From positions 68,642-132,641 of the forward strand of contig VXTM01000004.1 in assembly GCA_009837445.1 (NCBI GenBank): a stretch of DNA of 64,000 bases, read 5' to 3'. This stretch comes from Acidimicrobiaceae bacterium. Its GTDB lineage: Bacteria; Actinomycetota; Acidimicrobiia; Acidimicrobiales; Aldehydirespiratoraceae. A program made the position numbers and the translations under genes. This document shows positions 30,387 to 40,694 of the stretch, one piece after another; within the stretch, counting starts at the first letter, position 1; every line of letters begins with the position of its first letter. The notes under the pieces are model-generated. The model saw only the letters and a program-made list of their open reading frames with translations. It did not search any database and had not been told where the DNA came from.

Positions 30387-31907
30387 GTGGCTGACCGGCC
30401 CAACATCCTGCTGATCGTCTCCGACGAGGAACGCCGCAACGACTGGCTCGACGGTGTGGTGGACCTGCCGGCCCATGAGCGGCTGACGGCCGACGGGCTG
30501 AGCTTCGACCGCTACTTCACCCACGCCTCGCCGTGCTCGCCGTCGAGGGCCAGCCTCTACACCGGCCGCTACCTGGCCGAGCACGGCGTGGTCGACAACG
30601 TCGCCTTCCCCACCCACACCGCCCTCGACCCGGCCATCCCCACCATCGGCAGCCTGCTGGCCGACCGCGGCTACCGGTCGAGCTACCTGGGCAAGTGGCA
30701 CCTCGGCCACGGCGAGACACCCGACATGGAGGCCCACGGCTACCGCGACTGGGAGGGCAACGACGTCCACTTCATGGGCAGCGCCTACACCGGCCGCTAC
30801 TTCGACCCGATCATCGTCGACCAGGCCATCGACTGGCTTCAGGACCGGGCTGGCGAGAACGCGAACGGTCAGCCGTGGTTCCTGACCGTGGCGCTGGTCA
30901 ACCCGCACGACATCATGTGGTTCCCAGCCGACCACCCGAGCTACCAGGCCGAGCACCCCAAGTTCGCCAGGTTCTTCAACGCGGTGGTGGAAATGCGCCT
31001 GGGCGACCTGCCGGTGACCCCGCCGCCGGAGGACTACCCCCGGCTGTTCGACCGGCTGCCCGACAACTTCGCCGACGACCTACACACCAAGCCCGAGGTG
31101 CAGCGGGCCTGGCGCCACGTTCGCAACCGGGAGCATGTGGTCGGACGCATCGACGCCGACGACCACGACACCTGGCTGCGGGGCCTCGACTACTACGCCT
31201 GGCTGCACATCGAGCTGGACCGCAGCCTGAGCCGCCTGCTCGACGCCCTGGACACTCTCGGCCTCTACGACGACACGGTCATCGCCTACACGTCGGACCA
31301 CGGCGACGCCTGCGGGTCCCACGGCCTGCGGGCCAAGCTGCCCTGCGTCTACGACGAGGTGATGGGTGTGCCGCTCATCGTCAAGGCCCCCGGGGTGCCG
31401 GCCGGGGACCGCACCGCAGCGCTGGCCACCCATGTCGATCTGGCGGCCACGATCGCCGCGCTGGGCGGCATCGACCCTGCCGACACGCCCACCCTCTCGG
31501 GCCGGGACCTGGCCCCGGTGCTGACCGACCCGGACGCCTCAGTGCGCGACTTCGTGCTGTTCTCCCAGGACTCGGCCCAGTCCGACCTGATCCGCAACAC
31601 CCGCTACGCGGTGCGTGGCTTCTACGACGGCGAGACCAAGTACGCCCGCTACTACGGCGTGGGCGGCGGCATCCAGCGCGACGGAACCGCCGACACCGAC
31701 GGCAAGCTCTTCGATGTGGACGCCGACTTCGACGACCACGACCACGAGTGGTACCAGATCGCCGAGGACCCCCACGAGCTGGTCAACCTGGCCAACGACC
31801 GGGGCCGGCGCAGCGAACTGCGCGACCTGTTCCGCCGCCTGCTGGACTATGAGGCCGAGGAGCTGACACCCACGCAGTCAGGGAATCAGCAGGGCCTGCT
31901 CTCATAG
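30387..31907 (+). CDS. sulfatase (arylsulfatase/choline-sulfatase type)
   Basis: 506-residue type I sulfatase. PNILLIVSDEERR carries N-terminal metal ligands, and CSPSR (Cys50-Arg54, then ASLYTGR) is the formylglycine site, so activation by a formylglycine-generating enzyme is expected; none is in this window. LGKWHLGH, TSDHGDACGSHGLRAK and the C-terminal half fit the family. No signal peptide is visible, which suggests cytoplasmic action on an imported sulfate ester. GTG start. The 3' end overlaps the convergent secreted-protein gene by 22 bases. Confidence 0.93.
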   Translation: MADRPNILLIVSDEERRNDWLDGVVDLPAHERLTADGLSFDRYFTHASPCSPSRASLYTGRYLAEHGVVDNVAFPTHTALDPAIPTIGSLLADRGYRSSYLGKWHLGHGETPDMEAHGYRDWEGNDVHFMGSAYTGRYFDPIIVDQAIDWLQDRAGENANGQPWFLTVALVNPHDIMWFPADHPSYQAEHPKFARFFNAVVEMRLGDLPVTPPPEDYPRLFDRLPDNFADDLHTKPEVQRAWRHVRNREHVVGRIDADDHDTWLRGLDYYAWLHIELDRSLSRLLDALDTLGLYDDTVIAYTSDHGDACGSHGLRAKLPCVYDEVMGVPLIVKAPGVPAGDRTAALATHVDLAATIAALGGIDPADTPTLSGRDLAPVLTDPDASVRDFVLFSQDSAQSDLIRNTRYAVRGFYDGETKYARYYGVGGGIQRDGTADTDGKLFDVDADFDDHDHEWYQIAEDPHELVNLANDRGRRSELRDLFRRLLDYEAEELTPTQSGNQQGLLS

Positions 31908-32467
31908 ATTTTCGTTCCGTCCGAGTACTCAACCCAGTAGAGGCAGCGGGACGGCGTCGTCCTGCCCAGGTACCTCTCCTCATCCACCGAAGGCCATTGC
32001 CTCGACCCCAGCGCCTCGGGGAGAGTCATCCCGCAGCCACCCTCCTCCTCGGACCTCATCAGATGGCTGAGCTTCCTGCTGTACTCGATGTTCGACATCT
32101 GATGGTTGGCCCGGATCGGCGTGCAGTCGAGAACCTGCGGGGCGGCAGCGTCCGGCCCTGAACCGGCCGGGGGTGGAGCGCCCGGGGAGCCACCGCCCGG
32201 GGAGCCACCTCCGCTGGGGAACCCACCCGTCGATGGGCCTCCGGTGTTCGGCGACCCACCGGAGTCTGTCGACCCCGGGGGAGGATCAGCCATCTCGGGG
32301 GCGGGGCGACCCTCCTCGAGGTCGATGGGAAGGATGAACCTCCTGTCCTCGGCCGTCGCCGACGATGGGACGGCGAGCACGACGCTTCCGGCCAGTGTCA
32401 CCGCGGCAACGACCCGGAACCGCCAGGCTCGGCGATCAGTAAGCGCGCTCGGATACAGGAACCGCAT
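31886..32467 (-). CDS. secreted protein with Pro/Gly/Ser linker, unknown
   Basis: 193-residue exported protein. The N-terminus is basic, then hydrophobic (VVAAVTLAGSVVLAVPSSATA) with a signal-peptidase-like ATA site near residue 39. Residues about 60-110 are a flexible Pro/Gly/Ser-rich linker with repeated GGSPGGG-type units. The C-terminal 80 residues contain four cysteines (DCTP, GGCGM, SRCLYW and a final Cys), suggesting two disulfides. No family recognised. It lies nine bases after the coiled-coil/peptidase gene, so the two are probably co-expressed and may be partners or protease and substrate. Confidence 0.75.
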   Translation of the reverse strand: MRFLYPSALTDRRAWRFRVVAAVTLAGSVVLAVPSSATAEDRRFILPIDLEEGRPAPEMADPPPGSTDSGGSPNTGGPSTGGFPSGGGSPGGGSPGAPPPAGSGPDAAAPQVLDCTPIRANHQMSNIEYSRKLSHLMRSEEEGGCGMTLPEALGSRQWPSVDEERYLGRTTPSRCLYWVEYSDGTKIYESRPC

Positions 32468-32476
32468 GGCTGGGCC

Positions 32477-33862
32477 CTAGCTCACCGCTGAGCACGCGGA
32501 CGGGGAGGTATAGGGATCGGCCTGCAGTTGCTCCCTGGGCTCGCTCTCATACAGGCCGCTGTAGTAAGCCTCGTCGTACCGGCAGATGGCGCGCAGATAA
32601 TCGTCCCAAGCCTGGTCGAACGCCTCGTAGGCCCTCTGGACCTCTGCGAAGTTGTTCTCGGACGTATCGCACTGCGCCACAGCCTCGAGGCTCCCGCAGT
32701 GCAGTACGACCTTTCTGTCGTAAGCGTCCCGAGCCTCCAGCATCCTCGCTCTGGCGAGGTCGTGCCGCTCCTTGGCCCCGTTCACGCGCGCCCTGAGCTC
32801 GGAGTTCAGCGGCCGGGTTCCTTGCCGGAGCTCGATCACGTATCCCCGCACGTTGCCCTCCGGGACCCAGTACCCGTCCGGTTCCTCCCTGGCGTCGCCC
32901 TTCGTCCAGAAGTAGTAGACGCCGTCCTCGACCTTGACATCGGTTACACGGTGAAGGAGCGGCGAGGCGGTGCCGTCCGCCCCCGTCGGCGGGTAGAACG
33001 AGATGACGGTGCCCACGGCTATGTCCTCGGGGCGGAAGTTGCTGAGTTCCACCACGGTGTCCTGGCAGGTGATCTTGGGCTCCATGCTGCCGGTGCAAGT
33101 CGGGAACATCTCCCTCGACTCCACCACGAGGGCCCGGCGGTCCTCCTCCAGGCCGGCAATCACGGCTCGCAGGCCCGAGATCCTCTCCTCCAGGCCGGCG
33201 ATGACGGCTCGCAGGCCCGACGCCGCCTCCTCTAGGCCTTCGACGTTGGTGTGGGCGAGCTTGAGTGTCTCATTCTCCGCCTCGAGCCTGTGCCGCGTGC
33301 TCTCCAGCCCTTCGACGGTCGCCTTCAGGCCGGCGTTCTCCTCGCCCAGGCCAGTGTTCTCCTCAATCAGGCCGGCGTTCTCCTCCCCGAGGCCAGTGTT
33401 CTCCTCGCCCAGGCCAGCGTTCTCCTCGCCCAAGCGGGCGTACTCCTCGCTCAGGCCGGCGTACGAGGCCTCGAGGCTGTCGTGCTGCCGCTCCAAAGTT
33501 GCCACCGTCGCCGACAGCTCGTCGCGGAGGTTCTCGAGGGCCTGCAGATCGGCGGTCAGGCTCTCTGTCCGGTCCTCGAGCTCCTCGCTGACCAGGCTGC
33601 TCTCGTCCAACGCCTCCGCCTTAGAGTCCCGGTCGTCTCGGAGGCTCTGAAGCCTGGAGCTCTGCTCCTGCAGATCGCGCTCGTTCAGGTCGAAGTCATC
33701 GGCCAGTTGCGTCAGCGCCGCATTCAGCCTCCCGTTCTCCTCCTTCGCTTGATCGACCTCCCCCCTGGCGCCCACCAAGGACACCGTCAGCGCGATCACA
33801 GCAGCGCACAGCAGCACGGCAACAAGCGCCGCCGTGATAGTCCGTTTACTCATCCTCATCAC
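32477..33862 (-). CDS. membrane-anchored coiled coil fused to a SipW/Sec11-type signal peptidase (S26) domain
   Basis: 461-residue protein. Residues 8-31 are a membrane anchor. About 33-250 is one long coiled coil, including five seven-residue LGEENxG units (144-178) and two 14-residue SGLRAVIAGLEE units (215-242). Residues 255-345 match the S26 peptidase of the archaeal/SipW type: Ser259 in TGSMEP, His304 in HRV where bacterial enzymes have Lys, and Asp323 in TKGDA..EPDGYWVPEGNVRGYV. A further Cys-containing helical region follows to the end. The usual domain order is anchor then catalytic core; here a coil of about 200 residues separates them. Start GTG 33862, with ATG options 3 and 9 bases in. 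Confidence 0.8.
   Translation of the reverse strand: MMRMSKRTITAALVAVLLCAAVIALTVSLVGARGEVDQAKEENGRLNAALTQLADDFDLNERDLQEQSSRLQSLRDDRDSKAEALDESSLVSEELEDRTESLTADLQALENLRDELSATVATLERQHDSLEASYAGLSEEYARLGEENAGLGEENTGLGEENAGLIEENTGLGEENAGLKATVEGLESTRHRLEAENETLKLAHTNVEGLEEAASGLRAVIAGLEERISGLRAVIAGLEEDRRALVVESREMFPTCTGSMEPKITCQDTVVELSNFRPEDIAVGTVISFYPPTGADGTASPLLHRVTDVKVEDGVYYFWTKGDAREEPDGYWVPEGNVRGYVIELRQGTRPLNSELRARVNGAKERHDLARARMLEARDAYDRKVVLHCGSLEAVAQCDTSENNFAEVQRAYEAFDQAWDDYLRAICRYDEAYYSGLYESEPREQLQADPYTSPSACSAVS
33329..33433. repeat. five 21-bp tandem units inside the coiled-coil gene
   Basis: Coding repeats for LGEENAG/LGEENTG/LGEENAG/LIEENTG/LGEENAG (residues 144-178). They keep frame, so gain or loss of units would change coil length only. 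Confidence 0.85.
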
Positions 33863-34159
33863 GGTTATGGATCGCCTTCCTCACTTGCCGCCGGCCGTGG
33901 GGTCCGCTTGGCCGGCGCAGAGGCTACTTCCGCTCATGGCTGCTTCATACATGTAGATTCGCTCATATACGAGAGGTCGCCTGCAGGCGCTTTCGACACG
34001 GGCGACGACCTCGGCTACGGCTACCGGTCGCTGTACGGGCCACGGAGGATCCCCCGCGATCTGGTCACTCCGGAACAGCCACCAGGACCGCCAAAAACAA
34101 CTGAGCGGCCGGTGCCGTAGCCTGCTGAACTGTAGGGTGGAGGAGTTGAAGCTGACGCC

Positions 34160-35455
34160 ATGACCTACACGATCCCCTCGACCGATTCCTCGACCGACCG
34201 GAGCGCAGACTCCGGCACCGATCCGCACGAGGACGCCAAGCCCCGGGCGCCGGTGGCCGACTGGGCCACCGACTTCGACCACGTTGATCCGGGCTACGCC
34301 GCCCGGGCCCCCGAGATCTGGGACGAGCTGCGCGACGAGTGCCCGGTGGCTCACAGCGAGCGTTACGGCGGGACCTGGCTTCCGGTGCGCCACGAAGACG
34401 TCTGCGCCATCGCCAAGGACGCCGACACCTTCAGCTCCAACGGGGTGGTGGTCCACGACGGCCGGCCCGACATCCCTCCCCCGGTGGGGTTCGCCCCGCC
34501 GATCACCAGCGACCCGCCGTTCCACCGGATCGCCCGGGAGTTCCTGCTGCCGGCCTTCGCGCCCAAGCCCATAGAGGCCAAGCGCGAGTCCACCCGCGAG
34601 ACCTGCCGGGAACTGCTCGACGACCTGCTGGCCGACGTGGAGGCGGGCCGCACCGACATCGTGGACGCCGCGCTGGGCTACACCCAGCACATCCCGGTGA
34701 GGGTGATCGCCGACATGCTGGGCGTACCCCGTTCCGACGGCGACCAGTTCCGGGTGTTCATCCACCGGATCATGGAGCAGCCGGGCACCGAGATCCGCGT
34801 CGAATACGAGGACTCGATCGACTTCTACCTCGACAAGCTGATCGCGGACCGGGCTGAGCGGCCTCAGGACGACCTGATCAGCCACATGACCCACGCGACG
34901 ATCGCGGGCCAGCCCCTGGCGCACGAGCACGTGCGGGGCACCTGCGCGCTGCTGATCGTCGCCGGGGTGGACACGACGTGGTCGGCGATCGGCGCCTCGC
35001 TGTGGCACATGGCCCAGAACCCCACCGACCGCCGCCGCTGGGTGGAGGACCCCGACGTGCGGCCCTTCGCGGTGGAGGAGTTCTTGCGCTTCTACGCGCC
35101 GGTGACCATGGCCCGGCTGGTGGCCAAGGACGCCGAGTTCGCCGGCCAGTCGATGCGGGCCAACGACTGGGTGCTGCTGCCGTTCCCGGCCGCCAACCGC
35201 GACCCCGACGCCTTCGAGGACGCCGGCACCTTCGTGATCGATCGCATGCGCAACCGCCATGTCGCCTTCGGGCTGGGCATCCACCGCTGCCTCGGATCGA
35301 ACCTGGCCCGCATGGAACTGACCGTGGCGTTGGAGGAGTGGATGGCCCGGGTCCCGGACTTCGAGCTGGCCGATCCCGAGGGCGTCAGGTGGTCAACCGG
35401 CCAGATTCGCGGCCCCCGGGAGCTGCCGGTACGGATCCTCAACGGCGCGACCTGA
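34160..35455 (+). CDS. cytochrome P450
   Basis: Second soluble P450, 431 residues. It has an unusual Thr/Ser/Asp-rich N-terminal tail of about 30 residues. Haem Cys377 lies in FGLGIHRCLGSN, the I-helix motif is AGVDTT (268-273) and the ExxR is Glu307-Arg310. It is distinct from the P450 at 13381 outside these motifs. The 297-base gap upstream, shared with the divergent coiled-coil gene, shows only a possible TAGGGT -10 near 34134 and a GGAGGAG ribosome site near 34140. The next gene starts 13 bases after its stop, so co-transcription is likely. Confidence 0.94.
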   Translation: MTYTIPSTDSSTDRSADSGTDPHEDAKPRAPVADWATDFDHVDPGYAARAPEIWDELRDECPVAHSERYGGTWLPVRHEDVCAIAKDADTFSSNGVVVHDGRPDIPPPVGFAPPITSDPPFHRIAREFLLPAFAPKPIEAKRESTRETCRELLDDLLADVEAGRTDIVDAALGYTQHIPVRVIADMLGVPRSDGDQFRVFIHRIMEQPGTEIRVEYEDSIDFYLDKLIADRAERPQDDLISHMTHATIAGQPLAHEHVRGTCALLIVAGVDTTWSAIGASLWHMAQNPTDRRRWVEDPDVRPFAVEEFLRFYAPVTMARLVAKDAEFAGQSMRANDWVLLPFPAANRDPDAFEDAGTFVIDRMRNRHVAFGLGIHRCLGSNLARMELTVALEEWMARVPDFELADPEGVRWSTGQIRGPRELPVRILNGAT

Positions 35456-38691: not shown

Positions 38692-39480
38692 TCACTCGAC
38701 CCGGCGGTCGCTCGAGTCGGCGCCGTTGCCGTGAACCGGAGCGGATCCTCCGGGGTAGAGACTCGGATGGCCCGGGCCCACGCCCGCCGATCGGAGAGCA
38801 TCGTCGGCCCGGCGGGCCCGGCTCCGGCCGGAGCGGCCCGCCGGCGGCCTCGCCCGCCCCCGGGTGCCGCGGTCCAAGGCGGCGTCGTCCACCGCCTCCT
38901 GAAGCAGCTCGCGCAGTTGCTCCCAGCCCAGGGCGCTGCCCGCTCCGACGACCCGTCCGTCGACACCGTCGACGAGGGCGAAGTACGGAGAGCCCGGAAC
39001 GTCGTAGTCCTGCCACGCGGCCGACGACAGCACGGCCTTCACGCCGGCCGGGACCAGCTCCGCCAGCGCCGACTCCGAGTCGTGGGCGGGGTCCTGGCCG
39101 ACGATCACCAGGCGGGTGCCGCTGCCGGGCAGGTCGACTCCCGGCTCGGCGAACGCCTGCCAGAACGGCTTGCAGGTGCGGCACCCCGACGACAGGAAGG
39201 CCAGCAGGGTGTGGTGCGGCACGCCGGTGACCGCAACCTTGGTGGGACCGCCCGCCGGCACAGTGCCAGCCAGATCGCTGGCATCCCTCCCGGCCGGGCC
39301 GGAGCCGCCGGCGCGGTCCTGATCGGGGGACGGTAGCGAGGAGGCTTCGGACTCCTCGTCAAGGCCGATTCCGGCCCGGTCGAGGGCCCGCAGGATCTCG
39401 GCGTGGGTCCTGAGCAGCCCGAACACGATCAGGGCGAGCACGCCGACCGCAACGGCCAGCAGCACAACCACCACAGTCAT
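38692..39480 (-). CDS. MauD-like thioredoxin-fold membrane-anchored protein
   Basis: 262-residue redox protein. The N-terminal 22 residues form a membrane anchor. A variable linker follows to about residue 80. The thioredoxin domain has Cys100-x-x-Cys103 (SSGCRTCKPFW) and the cis-Pro region VPGSPYFALVDG. The last 60 residues are Arg/Gly-rich and probably disordered. MauD-type proteins help form disulfides in Cys-rich partners in the cell envelope, which fits the very Cys-rich protein encoded directly upstream (four-base ATGA overlap). Confidence 0.85.
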   Translation of the reverse strand: MTVVVVLLAVAVGVLALIVFGLLRTHAEILRALDRAGIGLDEESEASSLPSPDQDRAGGSGPAGRDASDLAGTVPAGGPTKVAVTGVPHHTLLAFLSSGCRTCKPFWQAFAEPGVDLPGSGTRLVIVGQDPAHDSESALAELVPAGVKAVLSSAAWQDYDVPGSPYFALVDGVDGRVVGAGSALGWEQLRELLQEAVDDAALDRGTRGRARPPAGRSGRSRARRADDALRSAGVGPGHPSLYPGGSAPVHGNGADSSDRRVE

Positions 39481-40694
39481 CGGGCCACCGCCGGGCTGTC
39501 GGGAGTCTCAGAATCCTGCGGCGGTGCCTCCTGCTCCTGCGCCGGGGGGTCCACGGTCCGGAGGTGGTAACGGTGGAGCAGCAACGCGACGTCGGCGCGG
39601 CTGGCCGGCAGGTCGGCTCCGAAGCGGTCGAGGTCGGTCCACCAGACGATGTCCTTCTCGATCCCCCAGGCCAGCGCGCCGCGGAACCACGCGTCCTCGC
39701 CCACATCGGAGAACTCGATCTCTGCATCGCCCGGCGGCGAGCCGGCCAAGCGATGCAGGAAGACGACGGCCTGGGCCCGGCTCACGTTGCTGGACGGGTC
39801 GAACCGGCCCGGGGCCCGGCCGGCGGTGATGGCATTCTCTACCATCCACGCCACCGCGTGGGCGTAGTACGCGCTCGGGTCCACATCGTCGAACCCGTCG
39901 CTGTCCAGTGCGAGAGGCTCGCCGCTGTAGCGCCACAAGAACGTGGAGAACTGGCCCCGGCTGACCAACTCGTCGGGACCGAACAGGTCGTCGGTGAAGC
40001 CGACCGCGATGCCCTCGCTCGCCATCCACTCGACGGCGCCGGCATAAAGCGCCTTGGGGGGAATGTCGGTGAAGCCGTCATGCAGGCAGGGCCGGTCGTG
40101 GAAGCGGGTGCTCTGGCTGTACAGCACCGGCGACGTCGCGCACGCCGGGTCCCACTTCCACGGCGGCACGCAGGTGACGATGCGGCACTTGAGCGGCCCC
40201 ACACACAGGTCCTGGTTGCACTGGCCGTAGCGGAAGCGAGTGCACTCCGACTTGCGGGTGTCGCAGCCGCCGTGGCATTGGCACCTGGCCGGCGTGCACG
40301 AGTTGGCGCAGAGGCCGACGGAGGAGCACCGGCAGCCCTCGTCGCAGCTGAAGTTGCAGTCCAGGTAATAGCGCGGCTGGGGGCCGTTCAGGTCGCAGAA
40401 TCCCGAGCCGTCCGCCCTCCACCAGCCGGCCACGATCGTCCCCGGCGGGCAAAGGTTCTCACCGGTGATCTTGCAGCAGAACTCGCTCCAGTTGTCACAG
40501 CACAGCGCCCCGGGACGGCACTTCCCGGGCGGGCAGTGGACGATCGCAGCCTCGGCTGTTGTCGGGCGCAGCGCGTAAGCGACCGGAGCGACCGCGACCG
40601 CGGTGGCGGCCATGGCCGACTTGCGCAGGAAGCCCCGGCGCCCGGCGCGGCGGTCCACCACCCGCGAGACCCGCTCGACCAGCGTACGACTCAC
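39477..40694 (-). CDS. Tat-exported MauA-like cysteine-rich domain fused to three SLH domains
   Basis: 405-residue exported protein. The twin-arginine signal RRGFLRK begins at Arg19. Residues about 54-203 contain about two dozen cysteines; LCPPGTIVAGWWRADGSGFC (81-100) resembles the methylamine dehydrogenase light-chain region that carries tryptophan-derived cofactor. Three S-layer homology repeats follow (about 208-258, 268-318 and 328-377), ending in a Gln/Glu/Pro-rich tail. The envelope-anchored Cys-rich protein is flanked by MauE- and MauD-like genes with four-base overlaps on both sides. No large MauB subunit or MauG is in the window, so enzymatic function is unproven. Confidence 0.8.
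   Translation of the reverse strand: MSRTLVERVSRVVDRRAGRRGFLRKSAMAATAVAVAPVAYALRPTTAEAAIVHCPPGKCRPGALCCDNWSEFCCKITGENLCPPGTIVAGWWRADGSGFCDLNGPQPRYYLDCNFSCDEGCRCSSVGLCANSCTPARCQCHGGCDTRKSECTRFRYGQCNQDLCVGPLKCRIVTCVPPWKWDPACATSPVLYSQSTRFHDRPCLHDGFTDIPPKALYAGAVEWMASEGIAVGFTDDLFGPDELVSRGQFSTFLWRYSGEPLALDSDGFDDVDPSAYYAHAVAWMVENAITAGRAPGRFDPSSNVSRAQAVVFLHRLAGSPPGDAEIEFSDVGEDAWFRGALAWGIEKDIVWWTDLDRFGADLPASRADVALLLHRYHLRTVDPPAQEQEAPPQDSETPDSPAVAR

What the first reader, a model, noticed from the sequence alone, without database searches (positions are those of the whole stretch)
32477..33862. Signal-peptidase-like catalytic domain placed at the far end of a long membrane-anchored coiled coil
Residues 8-31 anchor the protein, about 33-250 form a coiled coil, and 255-345 carry the SipW/Sec11-type S26 motifs TGSMEP (Ser259), HRV (His304) and TKGD (Asp323). 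Known S26 enzymes keep the active site at the membrane surface because they cut just outside it. A coil of about 200 residues would hold the active site far out, so it probably does not process ordinary signal peptides. It may cut a surface or cell-wall protein at a set distance. The coiled-coil length, the added C-terminal Cys-containing helix and the adjacent secreted gene suggest a dedicated two-gene system.
Basis: partly seen in the sequence, partly recalled or inferred. Interest (0 to 1): 0.82.

Follow-up and report, generated by a model that had tools for sequence, protein, structure and literature searches.

The report
Signal-peptidase-like protease on a long stalk
This gene encodes a signal-peptidase-type protease held roughly 25-30 nm from the membrane by a rigid stalk; it belongs to an undescribed family otherwise found only in Chloroflexota, travels as a two-gene cassette with a secreted protein carrying a conserved N-terminal tag, and therefore probably processes surface proteins rather than ordinary signal peptides.

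Summary
ORF 32477-33862(-) encodes one transmembrane helix, a proline-free heptad coil (3.5-residue periodicity above all 2000 shuffles), an S26 domain with the SipW/Sec11-type Ser259/His304/Asp323, and a Cys-containing helical hairpin. AlphaFold gives one unbroken helix (~7-202), a weak hinge, then an S26 fold (pLDDT 87; Z 9-10.6 to SipA, LepB, Sec11C). A CTGSMxPxxxCxD scan of 84,980 species found 20 loci, all Chloroflexota. Most are TM + coil + S26; three are lipoprotein-like + Pro/Thr stalk + S26, so distance from the membrane looks selected, not the coil itself. Ser, His, Asp and two flanking Cys are invariant. In the window's subclade (window + 4 Chloroflexota) the adjacent secreted gene is conserved in an unusual way: signal peptide + FxxPIxLEExRxxP is constant while bodies differ. 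That module was absent from 391 of 393 and 394 of 395 sampled genomes of two classes; the exceptions all carry this peptidase. The two window genes are an insertion between a sulfatase and a P450 gene that overlap in congeners. Elsewhere in the family the peptidase is an orphan, so "always a two-gene system" is false. Cleavage of the partner is inferred.

The parts
32477..33862 (-). Stalked S26B-type peptidase gene, 461 aa
33773..33829 (-). N-terminal transmembrane anchor (residues 12-30), N-in/C-out by flanking charge
33113..33766 (-). Coiled-coil stalk (residues 33-250); one helix ~7-202, weak hinge ~203-209, second helix ~210-245 in the model
33325..33462 (.). 21/42-bp tandem repeat encoding LGEENxG heptads of the stalk
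32825..33118 (-). S26 catalytic domain (residues 249-346): CTGSMEPxxxCxD with Ser259, HRV with His304, KGD with Asp323; Cys256 and Cys266 flank the serine
32480..32812 (-). C-terminal helical hairpin and Cys-containing tail (residues 351-461)
31886..32467 (-). Partner gene, 193 aa secreted protein, 9 bp downstream of the peptidase stop; Gly/Pro/Ser-rich linker and Cys-containing C-terminus without a family hit
32297..32467 (-). Conserved partner module: signal peptide (AxA site) + FILPIDLEEGRPAP
31876..34032 (.). Two-gene insertion relative to congeners (borders approximate, from where the congener alignments stop and resume)
34033..34157 (.). Decayed second copy of the sulfatase 3' end at the right border of the insertion

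Best explanation
A membrane-tethered serine peptidase of the S26B (SipW/Sec11) type whose catalytic head is held roughly 25-30 nm out by a (probably parallel, dimeric) coiled-coil stalk, so that it works at or beyond the cell wall. It recognises secreted partner proteins after export and after their signal peptide has been removed by the ordinary LepB, through the conserved N-terminal module FxxPIxLEExRxxP, and cuts them in or near that module, maturing or releasing the partner at the surface. Shown here: architecture, predicted fold, invariant catalytic residues, spacer conservation across the family, co-occurrence and adjacency of module and peptidase in the window's subclade, joint presence in one insertion. 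Inferred: dimerisation, location relative to the wall, recognition, and cleavage of the partner.
For: S26 fold and boxes. Ser/His/Asp and two Cys invariant in the 19-row alignment, rows 29-63% identical to the window. Spacer of 105-283 residues in every full-length member measured; coil in nearly all, Pro/Thr-rich in L120, and L025, L039 and L120 carry lipobox-like signals, so different anchors and spacers give the same result. Model: continuous helix, no hairpin fold-back. Housekeeping LepB present in the window genome and the four partner-carrying Chloroflexota genomes. The partner found from the window protein alone: best tblastn hit among 20 loci is the gene next to the peptidase. Module directly beside the peptidase in G000, G434 (two copies), G437 and G440, which are the sequences the profile was built from; independent hits elsewhere in G434 (E 2e-25) and in G433 (three, E 1.6e-6 to 1.1e-4); no match at E<=0.001 in seven genomes with other-clade peptidases, and absent from 391/393 and 394/395 genomes sampled from the two classes after setting aside one unrelated trypsin hit. 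Partner bodies differ (choice-of-anchor R/SWM, fn3, or neither) while the module is constant; other choice-of-anchor R proteins in these genomes were not hit by the module. The two window genes form one insertion absent from congeners.
Against: No activity data. The module has no obvious small-x-small site of its own; the only such site is the signal-peptide cleavage site. A bend at the ~203-209 hinge, or a coil lying along the membrane or folded in an oligomer, could bring the head closer. Most family members outside the subclade have no recognisable partner nearby. Only five genomes carry the pair, four of them related Chloroflexota, so co-occurrence counts few independent events.
Confidence: 0.45

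Rival explanations
1. Dedicated signal peptidase, as SipW is for TasA: it removes the partner's own signal peptide at the membrane, and the coil folds back, bends at the hinge or lies along the membrane.
For: S26B family as SipW; gene next to its presumed substrate as in sipW-tasA (PMC13082335); conserved Phe a few residues after the predicted cleavage site, recalling the TasA P2' Phe (PMC10269814); AxA-type site present in the partners.
Against: Coil predicted as one unbroken helix with no fold-back; spacers of 105-283 residues kept throughout the family and also built from Pro/Thr stalks on lipoprotein-like anchors; AxA sites look cleavable by the LepB that is present.
Confidence: 0.25
2. 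Binding or assembly factor like SipA: the S26 cleft holds the partner's N-terminal strand to guide assembly or anchoring on the surface, without needing proteolysis.
For: Best structural match is SipA (Z 10.6, tied with others), which is essential for pilus polymerisation without a catalytic Ser/Lys (PMC4049620); partners in Chloroflexota are adhesin-like repeat proteins.
Against: Unlike SipA, Ser, His and Asp are invariant across a very divergent family.
Confidence: 0.2
3. The partner association is incidental: the peptidase has other substrates (general surface-protein trimming), and the neighbour is simply carried in the same cassette.
For: Orphan peptidases in other clades and several paralogues per genome.
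Against: The module is constant while partner bodies differ, appears only with this subclade of peptidase, and lies beside it also in the window genome, outside Chloroflexota-dominated relatives.
Confidence: 0.1

Closest known systems
SipW / archaeal-type signal peptidase (NCBIfam TIGR02228, NF046067; MEROPS S26B)
   Same: Fold, GSM / HRV / KGD boxes, extracytoplasmic domain on a membrane anchor, gene next to a secreted partner.
   Different: ~225-residue stalk between anchor and domain; Cys pair flanking the serine; C-terminal Cys hairpin; scores below the curated TIGR02228 cut-off; partner unrelated by family search.
Sec11 (SEC11A/C, eukaryotic signal peptidase complex)
   Same: Same Ser/His/Asp boxes; Z 9.8 over 108 residues (7p2q_A).
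   Different: Sec11 works at the membrane surface in a complex (general knowledge); no stalk.
SipA of Streptococcus pyogenes
   Same: Best structural match (Z 10.6, tied with others); SPase fold used for surface-protein assembly.
   Different: SipA lacks the catalytic residues and the stalk.
LepB / type I signal peptidase (S26A)
   Same: Fold (Z 8.7-10.4).
   Different: Ser-Lys dyad; here His replaces Lys. A LepB is present separately in this genome.
Dedicated protease plus conserved substrate tag systems (sortase/LPXTG, exosortase/PEP-CTERM; from general knowledge)
   Same: Rare protease co-occurring with a short constant tag on otherwise different surface proteins.
   Different: Unrelated enzyme fold; tag at the N-terminus after the signal peptide, not at the C-terminus.

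Membership tests
S26B signal peptidase (SipW/Sec11/archaeal) | LexA/signal-peptidase fold | tested here: met
   AlphaFold pLDDT 87; VIA-align Z 9.8 to SEC11C, 10.4 to LepB
S26B signal peptidase (SipW/Sec11/archaeal) | Ser in GSM box, His in HRV, Asp in KGD | tested here: met
   Present and invariant in the family; aligned to SEC11C
S26B signal peptidase (SipW/Sec11/archaeal) | Curated NCBIfam TIGR02228 cut-off (51.85 bits) | tested here: not met
   49.5 bits, E 4e-13
S26B signal peptidase (SipW/Sec11/archaeal) | Catalytic domain directly at the membrane surface | tested here: not met
   225-residue spacer, predicted unbroken helix; spacer kept in all full-length members measured. Sequence and model only
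S26B signal peptidase (SipW/Sec11/archaeal) | Signal-peptide cleavage activity | not testable with these tools
   No experiment
LepB-type S26A | Ser-Lys dyad | tested here: not met
   His in the position shared with SEC11C
SipA-type non-catalytic homologue | Catalytic residues lost | tested here: not met
   Ser, His, Asp invariant
sipW-tasA-like operon | Partner belongs to the TasA/CalY family | tested here: inconclusive
   No Pfam or NCBIfam hit for the partner; fold of the partner not predicted

The most novel reading that the evidence does not exclude
A new surface-protein maturation system: stalked S26 proteases whose catalytic head works outside the wall and which read a dedicated N-terminal tag (FxxPIxLEExRxxP after the signal peptide) on otherwise unrelated surface proteins, transferable between distant bacteria as a two-gene cassette.
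Probability: 0.3. Interest if true: 0.82.

Novelty: new variant of a known kind. Interest (0 to 1): 0.62.

Why it matters
Signal peptidases are thought to work at the membrane surface. A family that keeps the active site and always adds a long spacer, built in different ways, implies an S26 protease with another job far from the membrane. The co-transferred partner with a constant N-terminal tag gives a directly testable substrate candidate, and would add a new enzyme class to protease-plus-tag surface sorting.

Tried and rejected
Phage or plasmid origin: no match in phages and only weak, mostly haloarchaeal signal peptidases in plasmids; viral-contig scans gave no relative. Generic S26 hits in the window's class look like ordinary SipW-like proteins (from reading the translated open frames) and were not counted as family. 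A partner-module hit in G420 is an unrelated trypsin-like protein. Homology of the partner's C-terminus to Chloroflexota partners: only 2.5 sd above shuffles, not claimed. Transposon: an inverted-repeat search of 31700-34300 found no convincing pair of border repeats. Fixed stalk length: rejected, 105-283 residues. The paper searches made found no description of a stalked S26 family; the library is partial.

Full report
Check of the observation. The coil is real: 218 residues without proline, with hydrophobic periodicity at 3.5 residues above every one of 2000 shuffles. The S26 assignment is supported by TIGR02228 (E 4e-13, 49.5 bits against a cut-off of 51.85), by SEC11C in the PDB (E 2e-4), and by fold: the 229-residue model has pLDDT 87 and matches SipA (Z 10.6), LepB (10.4) and SEC11C (9.8, 26% identity over 108 residues). 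Foldseek alone gave a best E of only 0.01. In the full-length model residues ~7-202 are one unbroken helix, followed by a weak hinge and a second helix into the S26 domain (numbering shifted by one); overall pTM is low (0.39), so relative placement is uncertain.

Relatives. Ordinary homology searches in the window's genus, family and class found only generic signal peptidases (translations of the hits read). A degenerate DNA pattern for CTGSMxPxxxCxD across 84,980 species gave 20 loci, every one from Chloroflexota (Dehalococcoidia, SAR202 and others); all 20 encode the motif in a long open frame. Four are 61-63% identical to the window protein over the 228-residue head and tail and 48-51% over full length in the three with an intact coil; the window sequence groups with these four at 100/100 support. 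The family is rare: at E<1e-24 in about ten of 393 genomes sampled from the class of G434, with up to five or six copies in one genome (G681).

Architecture across the family. Measured from the end of the anchor to the CTGSM box, the spacer is 105-283 residues in all 17 full-length members outside the window (two truncated or frameshifted entries left out). Nearly all are heptad coils. L120 has a 283-residue spacer that is 42% Pro+Thr; L025, L039 and L120 have lipobox-like signals and Pro/Thr-rich stalks. Ser, His, Asp, and the two Cys flanking the serine are invariant in the 19-row alignment. N-flanking charge mostly fits N-in/C-out. The distance estimate (~25 nm for residues 31-202 plus ~5 nm for the second helix) is arithmetic at 0.15 nm per residue, not a measurement.

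The partner. In G440, G434 (two tandem copies) and G437 the next gene downstream is a large secreted protein, and in G433 a choice-of-anchor R fragment lies upstream at a contig end. Their bodies carry choice-of-anchor R, SWM or fn3 domains. The window partner (193 aa) has none of these, but shares the N-terminus: signal peptide plus F..PI.LEE.R..P. It was found by tblastn with the window protein alone (best hit E 4e-4 in L033, the gene next to the peptidase) and aligned. A profile of that module, built from the five adjacent copies, hits those five by construction and in addition a distant third copy in G434 (E 2e-25) and three in G433 (E 1.6e-6 to 1.1e-4), with no match at E<=0.001 in seven genomes carrying other-clade peptidases. 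In 393 genomes of G434's class only G433 and G434 match; in 395 genomes of the window's class only G000 matches once an unrelated trypsin-like hit is set aside. Other choice-of-anchor R proteins in G434 and G437 were not hit by the module, so the association is with the module, not the domain. Outside the subclade the neighbours I inspected are housekeeping-type genes (output partly cut), so the pair is a feature of the subclade only.

Origin in this genome. In 11 of the 15 congeners searched, the sulfatase end and the P450 start lie together on one contig without the two genes; in those aligned here the two flanking genes overlap by a few bases (ACGCCATGA) where the window carries the pair. 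The insertion is ~2.16 kb, holds nothing but these two genes, and has lower third-position GC than its neighbours (0.79-0.87 against 0.89-0.94). To its right lies a decayed copy of the sulfatase 3' end (score 38 against 17.8 +/- 2.7 for shuffles). The decay is stronger than the ~5% divergence from the nearest congeners would suggest, so the insertion is either old and lost in sisters or was imported from an unsampled relative; this is unexplained. The direction of transfer (Chloroflexota to the window's lineage) is inferred from the distribution, not proved by the tree.

Mechanism. The genome has its own LepB and the partners have AxA-type signal-peptide sites, so routine signal-peptide removal does not need this enzyme. 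The simplest reading is an S26B protease working away from the membrane on exported partners marked by the N-terminal module. SipW-TasA (PMC10269814, PMC13082335) is the closest precedent for a dedicated S26B enzyme with a neighbouring substrate, and SipA (PMC4049620) for an SPase fold used in surface assembly without catalysis; both remain live rivals. Cleavage of the partner is inferred, not shown.

Limits. Genome samples were drawn evenly from larger groups, so absences are statements about the sample. The pattern scan can only find members with that motif.

Noticed in passing
window 39477-40694 (-): 405-aa ORF with a twin-arginine-like N-terminus, a Cys-rich region and repeats resembling S-layer homology domains (read by eye, no family search made).
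   Followed up: no
L028 3851-5452 (SAR202 bin22, G437): The coil and the S26 domain of this homologue lie in different frames, a frameshift within the stalk (assembly error or real, not resolved).
   Followed up: no
G681 and L031/L040/L042 (OX638292): Several stalked S26 paralogues per genome (five or six in G681, three in OX638292), beside housekeeping-type genes where inspected.
   Followed up: partly
window 34033-34157: Decayed copy of the sulfatase 3' end at the insertion border, more diverged than the nearest congeners would suggest.
   Followed up: partly
L143 931-1710 (-), G434: A third, distant module protein of 260 aa with a PPSVPVPQVRT repeat linker and Cys-rich C-terminus, similar in layout to the window partner.
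   Followed up: partly
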